In this document: positions 35,786-44,300 of the stretch, in pieces
How the letters are laid out: each line of letters starts with the position of its first letter
How positions within the stretch are numbered: the first letter of the stretch is position 1
Assembly: GCA_002221725.1 (NCBI GenBank)
Contig: NJFT01000109.1
Coordinates: forward strand, 62,001-126,000
DNA from: Scedosporium boydii
Lineage: Eukaryota > Ascomycota > Sordariomycetes > Microascales > Microascaceae
DNA: 64,000 nt
Reading direction: 5' to 3'
Made by a program: the position numbers and the translations under genes
The notes under the pieces: generated by a model
What the model saw: the letters and a program-made list of their open reading frames with translations, nothing else
Database searches by the model: none
Told to the model about the DNA's origin: nothing

Positions 35786-36054
35786 ATATTGAGAAGGACT
35801 CCGTGTAGAGTTGGCGTGTAGAGTTGGCGAGCAGTCTCAAGGAGGCTGGCCCCATTGTGTACCAATATTTTTACATAGCGGGTTTGACTTTAATGGATAG
35901 GAAATGGAAGATACCCCATGGTTAAGACTGTTATTTGGGTTGCTTTTTCTCTTTTAGCATCCCAGAGAGATGCTCGTAATTCAGTTATCACAATTCACAG
36001 CGAGACTCTTTACATCTGCATGACTCTTTGATTGTATTCTGTCCGCCCCTAGAC

Positions 36055-36846
36055 TCAACTGCCAAAAGAGTGCTGCGGCCTCAAAACCTCCGCCAAAAAC
36101 GCCATAATGGGAAACATTTCCTCTCTCTTCCGGGGCATATCCACCCCGCTCCGCTCCCACTTCACCCTCCTCACGCTCTCAAACTCCCTCTCAGCGTACT
36201 CCACATCCTCGCTATCGACCTGTACTAGCAAGGCCCTGCTCTTCGACTTTTTTCTCCCACTCAGCGTCGAGACCATCGAAGGAGGCAACGGCCCGCCGAT
36301 AGACACGACGCCCTTCAGTGCACCCCTCCGCGTCCTCGGATCCACCTCTTCATCCCCGACCTCTTCGAGCCTCGGGGGATTAGCGATATCAGCTGCCAAC
36401 CCCAGCGCAAACGATCCTCCTTGCCCAAAGCCGAAAAGAATGATATCATCCATCTCCCACCCCAGCTTCGTAATCAGCAGGCCTCGAATCAAGGTATCCA
36501 GCACCTTAGCCTTGGCGCGCGAGAATCCCGGGTCCGCATCTATGTCCCCCGTTGAAGGATCCAGGTTTATGTCGTCCCCCCAATGGAAGTGGCTAGGTGA
36601 AGAGGACGCTGATTGGTGGGGCAGAAGACTGAGTGGGAGGACGGAGGGCCCGCGGACGGCGATGCTGAGGACGCAGGGGAGGTTCATGCTGCGGGCGAAG
36701 TTGATGAAGGATTCGCTGTCGCCGAAGCCGTGGAAGAGGATGAGGAGGGTTGTGGTTGATTCTGGGGGGGAGGGAAACGATGTGGCGAGGTGGAGTGTTG
36801 GGGCGAGGGAGGTGAAGTCTTCCTCTGTGGGTATTCTGGGAGGCAT
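36055..36846 (-). CDS. phospholipase/carboxylesterase, acyl-protein thioesterase-like
   Basis: Single exon, 263 residues from the ATG at 36846 (MPPRIPTEEDF). It is an alpha/beta hydrolase: the oxyanion-side strand TTLLILFHGFGDSESF comes first, and the nucleophile elbow is GFGQGG. Here the usual Gly-X-Ser-X-Gly serine is replaced by glutamine, so the canonical nucleophile is absent at the expected position. A late segment SRALLVQVDSEDVEYA is where the family's Asp lies. The fold matches acyl-protein thioesterase/lysophospholipase relatives, but the missing serine suggests an inactive or altered enzyme. The frame is open 210 bases further upstream, but that leader lacks domain features. Confidence 0.8.
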   Translation of the reverse strand: MPPRIPTEEDFTSLAPTLHLATSFPSPPESTTTLLILFHGFGDSESFINFARSMNLPCVLSIAVRGPSVLPLSLLPHQSASSSPSHFHWGDDINLDPSTGDIDADPGFSRAKAKVLDTLIRGLLITKLGWEMDDIILFGFGQGGSFALGLAADIANPPRLEEVGDEEVDPRTRRGALKGVVSIGGPLPPSMVSTLSGRKKSKSRALLVQVDSEDVEYAEREFESVRRVKWERSGVDMPRKREEMFPIMAFLAEVLRPQHSFGS

Positions 36847-37633
36847 TTTCTGAGAGAGTTGGGTGTGGATTTGGGCAAACTGATATTTCTCTGTCCTGTT
36901 GGATGTGTTTTTATTTAGTTTGGCGGGTTGGGAATGTGAGAGCGTTCGGTTTGACGTGTGAGTTGTATGGCGATGTTCGGTCCAGAGTTCAGCCCGCCGA
37001 TTCGGAAAAGCTTCATATACCAGCCCACGACAAGAACTCTCGACCGAGCAGCTCAAGTAGATAGCACTGTGGCCCGTGGCCAGGTGGTCGATGGAGGGCG
37101 CAGAAGGTTAGAAATTTACAAATTTTCGAAGCTACGCGGCAAGCGATGAATTCGAGAGAACTGGGCTTTTTGGTACTTTTTCAGTTTTTTACTTTTATTT
37201 TATTTATTATGTCTCTCTCATCTTTTAGCTATGTCGCACTTAAACCAGTAACTCATTCGAATCGTCCATCATCGCCGCCATGCATTAAACGACATTAAAA
37301 GACAAGGGAAACAATTTACTCAATAACGCGAGCCTCGGTTGATCATCGCCTTTCCTACTTTCGCGCGTCTATCTTATCCACTTCCTCGGTGTCATATCCC
37401 ATGTTCGAAGCGGCGCCTCGCCTCATCCCTCGCCGATGGTTGTATCGAGCTATGGGCCGGTTGAGGGTAGACGGTTCGGTAACCGGGAAAGGAGATCTTA
37501 TCCGGCAAGAGTTCGGTCAACGCTTAAGAGTTTATCATAAACAACAAAAATATTCGAACATATCCCCTGTGCACTCAAATATATCCATCCGCCACAAATT
37601 GCTAGTTCTACGTTCTACCTTCAGAATCACGGA
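36847..37633. other. spacer between hydrolase gene and Spok-like gene
   Basis: About 790 bp. The left part is the promoter of the hydrolase gene and the right part the 3' flank of the Spok-like gene. One copy of the 11-bp word CTTTTTGGTAC lies at 37166-37176. No gene is seen. Confidence 0.5.
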
Positions 37634-39988
37634 TCATTTCTCTCTCATCCAAGGCCAGGCAATCTTTCTGCCCATATCTAGTGTGAAAAGAGTCTGCGCA
37701 TTCGACTTGTCCTCCCGCATCTTAGCCCGATGCAGCGCTGCCTCTCTCGACCCGTCTGACGCTGTCGACGAGCCCAAGTCATCATCCTCCAACAGTCGCC
37801 TCCGCTTATTAGGCGAGAGCGCGCTCATAGCCCTGCGGGACGCCTTTGACGAAATGGAGGCCTGGTCGAAATCGATAATGGTTACCTCTCCGGTAGGGCC
37901 CTGCAACACATTGGGCAACCTGATGTCGGCGTGTACTACCCCGAGGCGATGCATCTGATCGAGTATGCTGATGACAGAGTCGACAATACGCTCGCGTGTC
38001 TTGGGGTCTTCAGGTACTGCGAGCTTGGTACCCCCATAAGACAGGAGGAGGAAGTAGATAATGCGCACGTCAATATCATAGTATAGAACCTGATGTAGCA
38101 GCCGGAGGTCGACAGAGCCGAGACACACGGGGATATGGCGGCCTTGTAGAGGCTGAAGCCTCTGGTAGATAGCCTCTTCCTTTTGTAGGGTAGGTACGCG
38201 GCCCCCCGTCACGCCCTTGGCTATAAATGTGTAGCCGTATTGGAGCAGCGTGAGCTGAAACAATGCACCGCAGGCGCCTTCCTGCCCTAGGGTCACAACA
38301 CCCTCCACCAAGGTTCGAGATAGCTGCTGCTGCAGTAGAGTCATCCATTCCGCATATGAGACGGGGTGCTTTTGCCTGCCGGCGGGCCTGTCAGGCATCG
38401 TCCGCGTGTGCAGCAGTTTGTTCGGGCACTTGGTGTCCAATGGCCAGCCATTCACTAATGAAAGGAGGCAGGATGCCGTGCAGTATGGCCTGGTTTGCTG
38501 AGATTTGCCCCTGCCTTTGTCACCAGCACTGTTACCACTACTGCGTGTTGAGCGGCTAGACGACGGGCCTTGCCCTTGTGAGGCTTGCGCTGTCGATCCC
38601 GATCCCGACGCGGAACCACCCCCTTGAGGACTGCCTGCTTGACTCGAACTCCCGGCACTAGGACCCCCGCCGCCCTCGCGTCTACTATGTGATGGAAGAA
38701 CTGGGCCCTGCCCCAGGTCAGGCTGTGGTTGTGGCTTTCTCTTAACCTTTTTAATTGGCGTCGGCACCCAATCAGGACTGCTTGGTATACGGCGGTGCTT
38801 CCTTCCTGGGGGTGTCGAGGGACCAGCCTCTTCCGCCGTCTCTTGCTCGTGCTGCACGATTTTATCCACAATATAGTTGAAATCAACAGCCCAAGTTTTG
38901 CTTGACGTCGTTGCTGCAACACGCTCGTCATTGCTGCGCTGTCTTGTTTGAAGGGTAAGAACAGTGAATGCGAGGACCTGACAGACGGCATTGCTGTAAA
39001 CAGGATCTTCATTAGCCTCGACCTCGCGCGCAGGCCGTGCAAGATGGTAGAATAACCCCTTTGGATTAGTCCAGTCAATCTTGAGAAATACAATCGAATC
39101 ACCATTCGTCACATAGCCATACTCTAGCCCAGCTTCCAGCATATAATGGTACGTCTGTGTGACCGCTGCAGCTGATAGAAGTTCCGCGTAATGCTTGAAT
39201 TTAGCTGGTTCAGCTGTGGGTATAGTGGGCTTGTTGACAACTTCATCGAAAATGTTCATCCTTCGTAGACCCTGTTCAAAGTGTGATGTGTGGAGCTTGT
39301 GGGGTGCTTTATATTCTATCACGTATGAAATTTCCGTTCGACTGTTGGCGTCTCGATATACGCAGACCTGGTCTGTCCGTAGGCTCTTTTCCTTCATATC
39401 CACGCCATCGGTCGGATCGCGGAGGCTACTGGCGCTCGTTGCGAAGTATACCCCATTGCCAATATCAAGGTTGACTTGCTGCGACTGGTAGTGTTTGAGC
39501 TTGGATAAAATGATGCGCACAGGATCCTCGATGCAATTATTCTCAATAAAGACAAGTGAGGGCTCACCCTCGACCCATCGACCTCGGATTCGGTTGCCGA
39601 TAGTCTTTAGGAAGGCAATGCTCTCGAATAGCCGCTCATCCTTAGGGAGCATATGCGATATCTCACTGATGATGTCGATTTGTGTAGAGTCGAAATCGAC
39701 CCATGGAGTAAGGAGGTCTGGACAATGTTTTCTGGTAGGGTTTGTGGTAGGAGCCCTCGAGGTAAGATAGCCGTCGGTAATGAGGACAAGATTGCTCAAG
39801 ACATATTCATGACAGGCTTGTAAATATTCTTCGAGCGTTGTTTCGCGGGTTAGGTTTTGCGCTTGCTCCTTCTCGCGTCTCTCCTGGTCTGCCCGCGCCT
39901 CTGCTTGGTCTGCTCGCGCCTCCGCCTGCTCCTTCTCACGTTCCAGCTGTTCTACCCGACGCTTGAGTTCTTCGAGTGCCGATGGCAT
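37634..39988 (-). CDS. Spok-like: SPOK-family spore-killer homologue (nuclease-kinase toxin/antidote)
   Basis: Single uninterrupted exon, 784 residues. Domain order matches the SPOK proteins of Podospora: (1) a coiled coil at about 3-48 with a duplicated AEARADQ heptad; (2) a PD-(D/E)xK nuclease-like domain at about 90-385 whose likely catalytic residues are D206, E225 and K227 (TDQVCVY, then VIEYKAPHKL); (3) a Pro/Gly/Ser linker at about 385-500; (4) a cysteine motif C503, C507, C521; (5) a kinase-like domain at about 545-784 with K591 (FIAKGV), E604/E605, HADIRLPNV (D688, N693) and IDFD (D706). In characterised SPOKs one gene both kills spores lacking it (nuclease, coiled coil) and protects carriers (kinase). 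All motifs are present and no stop or frameshift is seen, so it looks intact. Drive activity in this fungus is not shown. Confidence 0.88.
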   Translation of the reverse strand: MPSALEELKRRVEQLEREKEQAEARADQAEARADQERREKEQAQNLTRETTLEEYLQACHEYVLSNLVLITDGYLTSRAPTTNPTRKHCPDLLTPWVDFDSTQIDIISEISHMLPKDERLFESIAFLKTIGNRIRGRWVEGEPSLVFIENNCIEDPVRIILSKLKHYQSQQVNLDIGNGVYFATSASSLRDPTDGVDMKEKSLRTDQVCVYRDANSRTEISYVIEYKAPHKLHTSHFEQGLRRMNIFDEVVNKPTIPTAEPAKFKHYAELLSAAAVTQTYHYMLEAGLEYGYVTNGDSIVFLKIDWTNPKGLFYHLARPAREVEANEDPVYSNAVCQVLAFTVLTLQTRQRSNDERVAATTSSKTWAVDFNYIVDKIVQHEQETAEEAGPSTPPGRKHRRIPSSPDWVPTPIKKVKRKPQPQPDLGQGPVLPSHSRREGGGGPSAGSSSQAGSPQGGGSASGSGSTAQASQGQGPSSSRSTRSSGNSAGDKGRGKSQQTRPYCTASCLLSLVNGWPLDTKCPNKLLHTRTMPDRPAGRQKHPVSYAEWMTLLQQQLSRTLVEGVVTLGQEGACGALFQLTLLQYGYTFIAKGVTGGRVPTLQKEEAIYQRLQPLQGRHIPVCLGSVDLRLLHQVLYYDIDVRIIYFLLLSYGGTKLAVPEDPKTRERIVDSVISILDQMHRLGVVHADIRLPNVLQGPTGEVTIIDFDQASISSKASRRAMSALSPNKRRRLLEDDDLGSSTASDGSREAALHRAKMREDKSNAQTLFTLDMGRKIAWPWMREK
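39884..39925 (-). repeat. 21-bp tandem duplication coding coiled-coil heptads
   Basis: Two adjacent 21-bp units (39884-39904 and 39905-39925) differ at four positions and each encodes the heptad AEARADQ or a phase of it, near residues 22-35 of the Spok-like protein. Whole-heptad units let the coiled coil lengthen or shorten without frame loss. Confidence 0.85.
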
Positions 39989-41349
39989 GGGGAATATGAT
40001 GAGAGTAGACGACGATGTGAATTTTACGGGATGATTGGGAGGGAAGAAGGAGGCATCGCGACCTCACGACTCCAGGCAGAGAACCCGTCTCCGTACTGGC
40101 TCTTCCCTTCTGGGGAATAAATGTTAAATGTTCTTGGGAAGTTCCCAAAACCAATCGTTCCTCGGAAAAGATTCGGAAGAATAAGTGCAGCCTACCAGCC
40201 AATCAGGGTTGGCTGCCGACGTTAGTCGAAAATGTTGGCGGCCCGGCCCGGCTGACCTGGCCTGAGTGGGCGGAACAAGTCCCGCAGCCACAGACCACAA
40301 AGGCTGGGATGAAGGAGTATCTGGAGCTCATTTCATCGATTTGACCCTCGACAGAAGGATCAATTGATCCCCATTTTGATTTCAATTTGGACGCCCTTTT
40401 TGGTACGTTTGTTCCCTCTTTTTAGTCTAAAAGGTGGTTAAAAAGGGTCGGCAAGAGCCTTACCGCAATCCAAAGAGCTGGGTGAAAAGAGACGGGCCGT
40501 CCTCCCTATTTCCAACAAGCCCAGAGCCCCTCTCTTCGTTTGTCCTCTTAATGGAGACGATCCGAACAATGGCGAGACCTCGAAGTCGATCGATGTCGGC
40601 CTTGAAGGAAAAGAAACAAGGTTATTAAAGGATAAAGGGAACAGTGAAGGAGTACCAACTTGGGAAGCCCGCGACAGCATTGGTTAGGCGGGAATATGGA
40701 GGAACAAGTCATTGTTGTAGATCCGTAAGGTTAGTTGGATTACCGGCTGCAAGGTTACGCACATACAGGCAGGCATACTTGGTGCTTCGACTGACATCGT
40801 TCGCACTGTGTAGACTCCTCGATTACTCGTACAGATCAGCATACTACTTGCTAGAAATGAAAGCAAACCAATAACTCACCATGGCGGAGCAACCGCCACC
40901 AGATCTCTGCGGACAACTTCATCTTAAAGAGATTCTTCAAGCGGAGGGTATTATCATTCTCAAGTCCCGGGTCGCCGCATGCTCTCCCATCTTCCTCGCC
41001 GCTCATGGCGTCATCCGCAGTTTTGCTTCCAAAACCTCATAGTCATCTTCCTCACCTAGCACGGCACATATCTTGGCGCGCTCCCTTAAGGAAGTTGACA
41101 ACTACCCTCGGCGTTTCACGAAAGTTACCCCTGGTAATCCTCTTTGGTATTGGTAAAGTTGGTTTGATACGGACCCGCTCTTGGTCAATTTGTACAATCA
41201 AAGAACTGGGTACTAGTGCAAGTCATGTCTTCATTACCAAGATCGAGCTTCTCACTAAGGGGCTGTGCTAACATTAAGCAAAGTGCTGAAGGATCCGTTG
41301 CCACAAGAGAGGAGTTCACAGTCATCCTAAATAATCAAGCATTCGATTC
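39989..41349. other. spacer between Spok-like and AAA+ ATPase genes
   Basis: About 1.36 kb. It contains the Spok-like promoter, the second copy of CTTTTTGGTAC (40396-40406), and a 53-codon plus-strand frame at 40881-41042 (MAEQPPPDLCGQLHLKEIL...) faintly like a BTB-domain start but too short to call. No other gene is seen. Confidence 0.5.
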
Positions 41350-44300
41350 TCACGATGGCCTCATCTTCTGCTCCTGCATATACGAATTGTACTCGAGCAG
41401 CCACTCATCCTTGAAACTCTTGCAGTTCCGGAATGCGCGCATCATGTGGCTCTTGGTCAACATGGGCGTCTCACCCTCCGCGTAGTCGGCGCGAGCCAGT
41501 CCCAGGGCCGTGGTTACGATGTTGCGTATCTGCCGGCCGTCGAACTTCTCGTAGTACACGTCCTCCTTGAGCCACTTCATCATCTTCTTGTAGTCCTCGA
41601 TCTTTCCTTGCTCATGCAGGGGGTCGAGGAATCCCCGGAAAATACTCTCCATCTGGGCTGGAATCAGCGGGTTGTACTTGATGGCGATGTGGATGCGCGA
41701 GGGGATGGCGATGTCAAGTTGCTTGATCTGGTTGGTCGTGAGGAACATGATGCCCTGGTAGTACTCCAAGACACGGAGGAAGACTGTCGCACAGATACGT
41801 GTGCACAGTTAGTACACCAGTACCAAACTTGGGGGAATGGTTGTTTGCTAACCTGAAACTAATGCGTTCTTCTCGGTCGACATGCTTACGAGCCTTCCGC
41901 GACTCTCAAGAAAGACGTCGGCCTCGTCTCTATTGCCGCGATGGAGAATTTGTTAGAAATTCCTAGAACAAATGACTAGACAGAGCCGGAAACAGGAGGC
42001 TACATGTGAAGACACGATTGACTACTCATGCATCACTTACATTAGCAGGATAGCTTGCCAAGAAGTAGCAAGCGAAAAGATTTTGGCCAGATTCGCCTCA
42101 ACATGCCTCGCCTTAGTACCAACGTCTGCGACGCTGATGGAGAATAAAGGCTTCGCGCTCGCCTCCGCAATAGTCTCGGCTGTTGAAGTCTTGCCCACCC
42201 CGGGTGGTCCTGTTTTCGTTTTTAAACATATCAGCATGTGGACAAGACGGCTTCTCATGAAGCAAGAACGAAGGAAACAACGGGCGACTAACCGTAAAGA
42301 AGAATCACAAGACCCTTCCCTTTGCCCGGTGTGATATCATCAACCTCCAACCCAGTCTTTCCCCCGTTGACGCTGGACGACGACGAGACGTGACTCCTCA
42401 CGAGGTCAAGCAGCAGGTCCTTCGTTTCGTCTCCGTCGGCAAGTTTCAGCCGGGACCATGGTCCCGAGTTGTCGCTGAGAGGGAGCTTGACGACTTTGTC
42501 GACTTCGAGCTGTGCCCATTGCTTGGCCTTGAGGATGTATCCTAGGACACGGGGAGGGCAGAGCATGAGCTGTTCATCCTCCCAGTCCTCGTCGACCTCT
42601 TGGCGCTGCAGCTGGTCGAACTCTGTCCTGTACTTCCTGCACAGCTCGGTGTTCTTCTGGCAGTCGAGACACATGCAGTCCGTGTCTTCAATCATCTGCT
42701 CTAGGGGTCCGTTTTTTGCGGTTGCAGGGCCGTATTGGAAGTAGGATTCATAATCCACCATGACCCTGCTATCGACCTATGCCGCTGTGTTAAAATAGTA
42801 CTGTGGATGATCCTGGGAATGTTGGCGTGTGAACATGGGATTCCCATACCTGTAAGGACTTAACGACCTTCTCGCTACTACTTTTAGCAGGCCTTCTAGC
42901 AGATCTTCGAGATCGCAGTAGAGCGAACAGGTCAAGCTCGACGAAGAACGGTCGTGGCTTTAGGTCGCCCTGATCCTGCAGAACCCTTGATTAGTACGTG
43001 CCAGCTACGGCTGTGAATGCAGCGTGGCGGAACAGGGTGTGTATGACCAACATCGTCGGTTTGAATTCCGGAAAAGCCTTTCTTATCGAAAATGGCTGGC
43101 CCGTGGTAATCAAACATCCGTCCGCCCTCCTTAGCCCTACACAGTGCCCTAAACGTTCTTCCCCGCTTCAACAGTTTCGCAGTAACGTCGACCTTATCCG
43201 GGTGCAGATGGAAAGGGAAGTACGGTAGCGCTGTGACGGGCATGTGGCCCTCAAAGACCTCGATGGATATCTTCATGGACGTGCGCTTGAACCTGTCGCC
43301 CGTCCAGTCGTACATCCAACAGCGCATGCCCCACGGGTAGAACTGCTGCGTGCTGTCCTCCTCGGGCCACGTGCACCCCGTGTGGCCCTGCACAATGAAC
43401 AGTTGGTCCTGCTTCTGGAACGGCTTGCCGTATACTAGGGTACCTGGGGGAAAGATGGTCCATAGGTCCTGAAACGCGATCATGTCGTTGCTGCGGTAGA
43501 CGTCGCGCGCCTTAAAGTAGTTGTCCAGCCGGATGTCACCGGACGACCCGCCGCTGATGACTCCTAGGAGGAGTTCGAGGTCCCGCCGCGCCCGCTTGTT
43601 ATCCTCGTTCGCGGGTTCCGCTTTAGCTGCTTTTTTGAGTGCGTCCCAGGAGTACACGAGTGCCTCGTAGGGCGAGTGCAGCGCGACGGGTGGGCCGCGG
43701 AATACATGGTCCGGGTACCAGCCAAGGTGAGACTTGAGCAGGTCCCAGAGGTGAGGATCCTTGATGTCGATGACTGAGTTGTCATCTTTCTGGCTGTGGC
43801 TCGGTCCGTGGAGGTACTTCTTCAAGACGAATGCGTACTCGTTAGACGCAGCAGGGGTGTCCTTGACTTGGGACTCCTCTGGTACTTCGACTCGCTCATT
43901 TTTGGACGGGTCATTCTTGCTGATGAGGATCTTGACTCGAGACTTATCTTCCTTCTGTAGGCCAATCCAATGACATCGTCAATCAGCTGTTACTATCACA
44001 TAGTGGAGCGATTCAATCATCTTTCCAATTTACCTTCTCTCCTTCGGGCGCTTCCGAACCGGGACCGCTCTGAGAATGTTTCGAAGTCAGGTCACGTCCA
44101 TACGCAACAAAACCACGGCTTTCCGCATCAGCGAGAATAGGGAACTGAACCTTAACCTTAACACCTTCCGTTGGTGCGTTTGGCATGCCATTTGCCTGAG
44201 CCAGGGCCTCGTGCCTTTTCTCCAATTCTGAGTACTTGGCTTCAAGAATCGCCAGCTTCTCCGCGAGCGACTGTTCAGGGAAACTTGGTTAGTTTGCGGG

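What the first reader, a model, noticed from the sequence alone, without database searches (positions are those of the whole stretch)
37634..39988. Intact SPOK-type spore-killer homologue
The 784-residue, intronless protein has the full SPOK layout: N-terminal coiled coil, PD-(D/E)xK nuclease (D206, E225, K227), a three-cysteine motif with +4/+14 spacing (C503, C507, C521), and a kinase with K591, HAD-N and IDFD intact. In Podospora a single such gene acts as both meiotic poison and antidote. All catalytic positions are kept, implying a possibly active selfish element in this fungus. Only the architecture is seen; drive is inferred.
Basis: partly seen in the sequence, partly recalled or inferred. 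Interest (0 to 1): 0.9.

Follow-up and report, generated by a model that had tools for sequence, protein, structure and literature searches.

The report
Intact SPOK-family fungal toxin-antidote gene
An unnamed fungus carries one undamaged gene of the known spore-killer (SPOK) family, a predicted DNA-cutting toxin and its antidote kinase in one protein; it belongs to a branch of the family scattered over distant fungi, but whether it kills spores here is untested.

Summary
It is a SPOK-family protein: the eight best homologues cover 98-100% of it, and 103 aligned relatives share the nuclease, Cys-cluster and kinase residues. It is 37-41% identical, in best local alignments, to relatives of the Podospora-containing clade. 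SPOK1-4 themselves were not retrieved. It lies in a separate, fully supported branch of 21 sequences from four fungal orders; that branch conflicts with taxonomy, in part modestly. Models show a restriction-enzyme-like nuclease part and a kinase. The coiled coil differs by one heptad from its 93% relative, a family trait. The gene sits alone among housekeeping-type genes, with no Starship captain found on the contig. Best reading: a complete, possibly active toxin-antidote selfish gene. Activity and drive are inferred; 2 of 6 tested Fusarium homologues were toxic in yeast (PMC12693581). A new member of a known kind.

The parts
37634..39988 (-). SPOK-family gene, 784 codons, single open frame
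39848..39985 (-). N-terminal coiled coil (residues 2-47, one long helix in the model)
39874..39922 (-). 21-bp heptad repeat in the coiled coil, 2.4 copies; two AEARADQ units here, three in the 93% relative P0001
39434..39847 (-). domain 1 (residues 48-185); modelled together with the nuclease at pTM 0.91
39038..39433 (-). PD-(D/E)xK nuclease core (residues 186-317): D206, E225, K227, Q278xxxY282
   Evidence: Pfam HSDR_N_2 19 bits, below its cut-off
38489..38827 (-). linker (residues 388-500), mostly low confidence in the model, with basic patch KKVKRK 413-418
38366..38482 (-). cysteine cluster C503-x3-C507-x13-C521-x5-H527-x13-H541
37814..38356 (-). kinase domain (residues 545-725): K591, E604, H686-A-D688, N693, D706-F-D708
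37005..37144 (.). dispersed repeat just 3' of the gene, at least 39 further copies in the genome (neighbouring feature)

Best explanation
A complete SPOK-family single-protein toxin-antidote gene, acting as a selfish element. Shown here: an intact frame; all checked catalytic residues; the order coiled coil, nuclease, Cys cluster, kinase; a kinase fold for residues 543-784 and a restriction-endonuclease-like arrangement for about 55-370 in the models; membership of a branch scattered over four fungal orders. Inferred from SPOK1 and SPOK3 experiments: the nuclease damages nuclear DNA of cells that received the protein but not the gene; the kinase with its Cys cluster neutralises this in cells that keep making the protein; so nuclei or spores without the gene die. 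Inferred: it arrived at this place as a lone gene between housekeeping genes.
For: 784-aa intact frame with all 17 checked catalytic or ligand positions. The counterparts are needed for killing (K240) and resistance (D667, C493/C497/C511) in SPOK3 (PMC6660238, passages). SPOK1 acts through DNA disruption in E. coli and yeast (PMC9972908, Discussion read). 132 homologues at E <= 0.001, best 93%. Branch of 21 rows with 100% SH-aLRT in a quick tree of 63 rows and 100/100 in a careful tree of 25 rows. With named rows only, AU tests reject one clade for the ten Hypocreales rows (p 7e-42) and for the three Ophiostomatales rows (p 4e-4). The nuclease stretch is the most conserved of seven regions in all five comparisons made. 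One-heptad length change in the coiled coil against P0001, like the variable repeat of Podospora Spoks. An alpha-box mating-type gene lies in the genome, so a sexual cycle is possible. Basic patches fit a nuclear protein. GC3 of 0.564 is the lowest of 11 genes measured in the window, a weak hint of foreign origin.
Against: No activity shown. 4 of 6 tested Fusarium homologues did nothing in yeast despite conserved sites. Only this copy of the branch was found in the genome, and one published view takes single-copy homologues as non-driving. No captain found on the contig; DUF3435 matches are on C21, C102 and C199. No presence/absence data. Most of the tree conflict rests on two rows: without P0007 and P0020 the Hypocreales test gives only p 0.022; parts of the tree follow taxonomy (Durotheca with Hypoxylon; Beauveria with Cordyceps); Geosmithia has five copies, so old duplication and loss may explain the conflict. 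dN/dS could not be computed: no DNA of P0001 was at hand.
Confidence: 0.55

Rival explanations
1. A fixed SPOK-like gene that no longer drives, or has been kept for another role, as Vogan et al. suggested for their single-copy clade I. The protein is intact because it is useful, or because decay has not begun.
For: Only copy of its branch found in this genome, between housekeeping-type genes; no captain found on the contig. Clade I view in PMC6660238 (passages). Intact residues without yeast toxicity in 4 of 6 homologues.
Against: The branch is scattered over four orders and conflicts with taxonomy; five copies in one species; coiled-coil repeat changes length between close relatives. No Fusarium protein was listed in this branch (candidates limited by shared words), so it is probably not clade I, which holds F. 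solani 82228.
Confidence: 0.28
2. A maintenance toxin-antidote that acts in vegetative nuclei (loss of the chromosome is punished) and not at meiosis, as proposed for Fusarium accessory chromosomes.
For: SPOK3 is toxic in vegetative cells; mitotic model in PMC12693581 (section read).
Against: The gene sits among housekeeping-type genes (ORC2, MetRS, prenyltransferase alpha, TGT) and not on an evident accessory contig; a mating-type gene is present.
Confidence: 0.1
3. An antidote-only resister whose nuclease is dead through changes outside the catalytic residues.
For: A resister allele with changes in the nuclease exists in Podospora strain A (PMC6660238, passages); within this branch the Hypoxylon protein P0008 has Q at the nuclease glutamate (225) but keeps the kinase Lys, Asp and Asn.
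Against: All nuclease residues and QxxxY are kept here; the nuclease stretch is the most conserved of seven regions in five of five comparisons.
Confidence: 0.05

Closest known systems
Podospora SPOK1-4 (single-gene spore killers)
   Same: No intron in the coding region; coiled coil with variable repeat, domain 1, PD-(D/E)xK with QxxxY, unstructured linker, Cys cluster C-x3-C-x13-C-x5-H, kinase with catalytic Asp (SPOK3 K240, Q294, C493, C497, C511, D667 against K227, Q278, C503, C507, C521, D688 here; SPOK3 numbers from PMC6660238).
   Different: On a separate branch, 37-41% identical to members of the Podospora-containing clade; DFD where 76 of 85 rows outside the branch have DFE; second His 13, not 7, residues on; no captain on the contig; drive untested. 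SPOK1-4 sequences were not at hand for direct alignment.
FuSpok1/FuSpok2 of Fusarium poae (toxic in yeast)
   Same: Same architecture; F. poae family member P0135 is 38.6% identical over residues 47-729 and keeps 16 of the 17 checked sites, with E for D708.
   Different: F. poae holds many copies, many on accessory chromosomes (PMC12693581); here one copy of another branch. That P0135 is FuSpok1 or 2 was not established.
Spok-N of Nectria haematococca (NECHADRAFT_82228)
   Same: A distant homologue (34% to SPOK1, PMC4022471, passages) that killed in P. anserina, so divergence of this size is compatible with killing.
   Different: Not retrieved here; placed in clade I by PMC6660238; no resistance in P. 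anserina and no effect in yeast.
Type IIG / type I restriction nuclease domains (BpuSI, DrdV, EcoR124I HsdR)
   Different: No methyltransferase or motor domain (recalled for these enzymes); a kinase in their place. Foldseek itself gave no match at E <= 0.001.

Membership tests
SPOK family | One protein joining a PD-(D/E)xK nuclease and a C-terminal kinase, coding region without intron | tested here: met
SPOK family | N-terminal coiled coil with a repeat of variable length | tested here: met
   helix 2-47; 21-bp repeat, two AEARADQ units against three in P0001
SPOK family | Nuclease residues D, E, K and QxxxY | tested here: met
   D206, E225, K227, Q278, Y282
SPOK family | Cys cluster C-x3-C-x13-C-x5-H and a second His | tested here: met
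   C503, C507, C521, H527, H541. The x7 spacing printed for SPOK3 is x13 here. The column is His in 93 of 103 rows and P0135 also lacks x7, so I do not take the spacing as defining.
SPOK family | Kinase residues Lys, Glu, catalytic Asp, Asn and DF[DE] | tested here: met
   K591, E604, D688, N693, D706-F-D708
SPOK family | Direct kinship to Podospora SPOK1-4 | tested here: inconclusive
   SPOK1-4 not among the listed hits (120 shown of 132, 219 and 576). Species that PMC6660238 names for the Podospora-containing clade (Polytolypa, Beauveria bassiana, Metarhizium rileyi) gave proteins 37-40% identical in best local alignments.
SPOK family | Killing and resistance in crosses or in vegetative cells | not testable with these tools
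   needs expression and crosses
SPOK family | Nuclear localisation | not testable with these tools
   only basic patches seen: KKVKRK 413-418, NKRRR from 727
Starship cargo | A DUF3435 captain on the same element | tested here: not met
   PF11917 matches in the genome lie on C21, C102 and C199, none on C109; a strongly diverged captain is not excluded

The most novel reading that the evidence does not exclude
The branch that holds this gene is a third, separately travelling SPOK lineage (Hypocreales, Xylariales, Glomerellales, Ophiostomatales) that can drive as a single gene inserted among housekeeping genes rather than as Starship cargo, with its own toxin-antidote specificity (DFD kinase). 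In it 'domain 1' and the nuclease form one type-IIG-like cutting module, dimerised by a heptad-repeat coiled coil whose length sets self-recognition.
Probability: 0.15. Interest if true: 0.75.

Novelty: new member of a known kind. Interest (0 to 1): 0.4.

Why it matters
SPOK genes are a rare case in which one protein is both poison and antidote, and how the antidote works is still open (PMC9972908, PMC12693581). A far-diverged, intact branch with the catalytic residues kept gives natural variation to test which parts set who kills whom. If active, it would show that such genes need not travel in giant Starship transposons. The model also suggests, without proof, that the unexplained first domain belongs to the nuclease.

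Tried and rejected
Starship cargo: not supported for this locus, no DUF3435 match on the contig.

Local duplicate of another SPOK-like gene in the same genome: rejected, the five own sequences put in the tree fall in a far clade with Plectosphaerella (some are long branches, one row is a part only).

Target-site duplication around the gene: CTTTTTGGTAC occurs at 37166 and 40396, but a shared word of that length or more arose in 15 of 300 shuffles of the near flanks and 42 of 300 of the wider flanks, and the left copy overlaps the T-run end of a dispersed repeat. Not used.

RIP damage: TpA/ApT is 0.77 in the gene and 0.74 in the window, no sign of it.

tRNA gene inside the dispersed repeat: ARAGORN (bacterial code) finds none in the window or in eight fetched copies.

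Rfam over 36000-42000: one match below its gathering score only, a snoRNA family.

First AU tests: Hypocreales p 7e-47 and Ophiostomatales p 6e-8, but they were unfair, because rows of unknown species (window, P0001, P0004, P0010, P0016) counted as outsiders and P0019 was torn from its sister P0016. Repeated with named rows only: p 7e-42 and 4e-4; without P0007 and P0020 in the Hypocreales set p 0.022.

Retrieving Podospora SPOK1-4: not listed by three protein searches (120 shown of 132, 219 and 576).

C109 positions 40001-62000 were fetched (L009-L011) but not analysed. dN/dS: no DNA for P0001.

Rows dropped: P0012, P0018 and P0019 of the branch were not put in alignment A2, so the residue counts cover 18 of 21 branch rows and 103 sequences in all. 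The tree used 57 of 343 retrieved homologues, the window protein and five own sequences; those used 24 and 20 homologues.

Full report
Observation. The frame at 37634-39988 (-) has 784 codons, ATG start and no internal stop. In an alignment of 103 sequences the three Cys, H527, the kinase Lys and the kinase Asp are invariant. Shuffles of the protein give the Cys-His pattern 2 times and the kinase loop 2 times in 20,000. Pfam sees a weak kinase (APH 27.2 bits and Kdo 22.7, both just over their cut-offs; Pkinase 24.9, under) and HSDR_N_2 at 19 bits, under its cut-off.

Family. A search of 5.8 billion proteins gave 132 homologues at E <= 0.001 (120 listed; only the 7,995 candidates sharing most words were scored). 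They run from 93% (P0001, unnamed source) through Durotheca rogersii 61%, Sodiomyces alkalinus 60%, Beauveria, Geosmithia morbida (five proteins at 47-57%), Niveomyces, Grosmannia, Sporothrix and Cordyceps militaris. The 120 listed rows carry the same precomputed Pfam family PF27653, which is not in the local Pfam result for the window protein. SPOK1-4 were not listed in any search. As stand-ins I used proteins of species that PMC6660238 names for the Podospora-containing clade (Polytolypa hystricis, Beauveria bassiana, Metarhizium rileyi) and the Fusarium poae family. Best local alignments give 37-41% identity; for several they cover residues 47 to about 420 only.

Anatomy against SPOK3. PMC6660238 (passages read) gives a coiled coil in the first 40 residues, PD-(D/E)xK 219-240 with K240 needed for killing, QxxxY 294-298, and C493/C497/C511 and D667 needed for resistance. 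The window protein has the counterparts K227, Q278, C503/C507/C521 and D688 in the same order and similar spacing. The second His of the cluster is 13 residues on, not 7; P0135 of F. poae also lacks the x7 spacing. One difference marks the branch: the residue after Asp-Phe is Asp in 17 of 18 branch rows, against Glu in 76 of 85 others.

Tree. In a quick tree of 63 rows the window protein and P0001-P0020 form a clade of 21 rows with 100% SH-aLRT and a stem of 0.98 changes per column. A careful tree of 25 rows repeats it at 100/100. Named members come from Hypocreales, Xylariales, Glomerellales and Ophiostomatales; the order was looked up for eight species and is recalled for the rest. With named rows only, the AU test rejects the ten Hypocreales rows as one clade (log-likelihood 130 lower, p 7e-42) and the three Ophiostomatales rows as one clade (47 lower, p 4e-4); leaving P0007 and P0020 out of the Hypocreales set, p is 0.022. 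The groups are taxonomic, but I had seen a tree before testing. Some parts agree with taxonomy: Durotheca with Hypoxylon, Beauveria with Cordyceps. Horizontal transfer, or old duplication and loss, would explain the conflict; PMC6660238 leaves the same choice open for its clade II. No Fusarium protein was listed in the branch, so it is probably not clade I of that paper, which holds F. solani 82228; this is an inference from the list.

Signs of a live gene. Of seven regions the nuclease stretch is the most conserved in each of five comparisons (P0001, P0002, P0003, P0006, P0135); against P0001 it is 96.8%, Cys cluster plus kinase 94.2%, the linker 87.8%. The coiled coil contains a 21-bp repeat; the window has two AEARADQ units, P0001 three, which accounts for 784 against 791 residues. 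Variable coiled-coil repeats are a stated trait of Podospora and clade II genes. I could not compute dN/dS. In the branch, P0008 (Hypoxylon) has Gln for the nuclease glutamate and Asn for D708, and P0020 (Geosmithia) has Cys for the QxxxY tyrosine, while both keep the kinase Lys, Asp and Asn; they may be antidote-only forms.

Locus. Neighbours are housekeeping-type genes: ORC2, PGP phosphatase and an abhydrolase on one side, an AAA-lid/DUF7025 protein and CutC on the other; MetRS, a prenyltransferase alpha subunit, an amino-acid permease and TGT lie further out. No DUF3435 match on C109; three other contigs have matches, two of them with stops. A dispersed repeat lies at 37005-37144. GC3 of the gene, 0.564, is the lowest of 11 genes measured. 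The genome has an alpha-box mating-type gene. Other SPOK-like sequence lies on seven contigs, C14, C79, C116, C128, C140, C46 and C94, with stops in the matches of the last two, and a short kinase-loop match on C127. The five put in the tree fall in a far clade; the frames on C79 and C116 keep all 17 sites checked.

Mechanism. From SPOK1 and SPOK3 work: the nuclease causes DNA damage (PMC9972908, Discussion read) and the kinase and Cys cluster give resistance (PMC6660238). I think it most likely that this protein works the same way. My estimates: family membership about 0.95; a working toxin-antidote about 0.5; drive in this host about 0.3. The tempering fact is that 4 of 6 Fusarium homologues did nothing in yeast (PMC12693581, section read).

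Novelty. SPOK homologues are widely reported: a 282-sequence alignment in PMC6660238, 437 in Fusarium in PMC12693581, and a patchy spread over Pezizomycotina in PMC4022471 (section read). Searches for papers holding SPOK terms together with Geosmithia, Durotheca, Sodiomyces or Ophiostoma showed no paper about this branch among the titles listed (20 of 26 and 12 of 31); the figure with the published SPOK tree could not be seen. So: a new member of a known kind, from a branch that deserves a test.

Noticed in passing
window 37005-37144, extending to about 37175; further copies in L020-L027: A dispersed repeat of about 140-190 bp with at least 39 other copies in the genome (40 scored at most). 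Eight fetched copies share a TATA-like stretch, stretches like tRNA A and B boxes (consensus recalled) and a CTTTTTG end, so it may be a tRNA-derived SINE; the window copy is decayed; ARAGORN calls no tRNA in it.
   Followed up: partly
own genome C14, C79, C116, C128, C140, C46, C94 (L002-L008, L012-L018): At least seven other places hold far-related SPOK-like sequence; frames on C79 (867 codons) and C116 (590) keep all 17 checked sites, the matches on C46 and C94 contain stops, C128 is split over three frames.
   Followed up: partly
P0008 (Hypoxylon sp. NC1633) and P0020 (Geosmithia morbida): Branch members that keep the kinase Lys, Asp and Asn but have changed nuclease-side positions (Q at 225; C at 282): candidate antidote-only forms.
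   Followed up: no
P0018 (Cordyceps militaris): A SPOK-like protein annotated as a DHH1-type RNA helicase, 1212 aa with helicase Pfam domains; perhaps a gene-model fusion.
   Followed up: no
own genome C21, C102, C199: DUF3435 (Starship captain-type) matches; those on C102 and C199 have stops inside, those on C21 have none.
   Followed up: no
own genome C211:1156-1590: Alpha-box mating-type gene near a contig end; no HMG-box match on the same contig.
   Followed up: no
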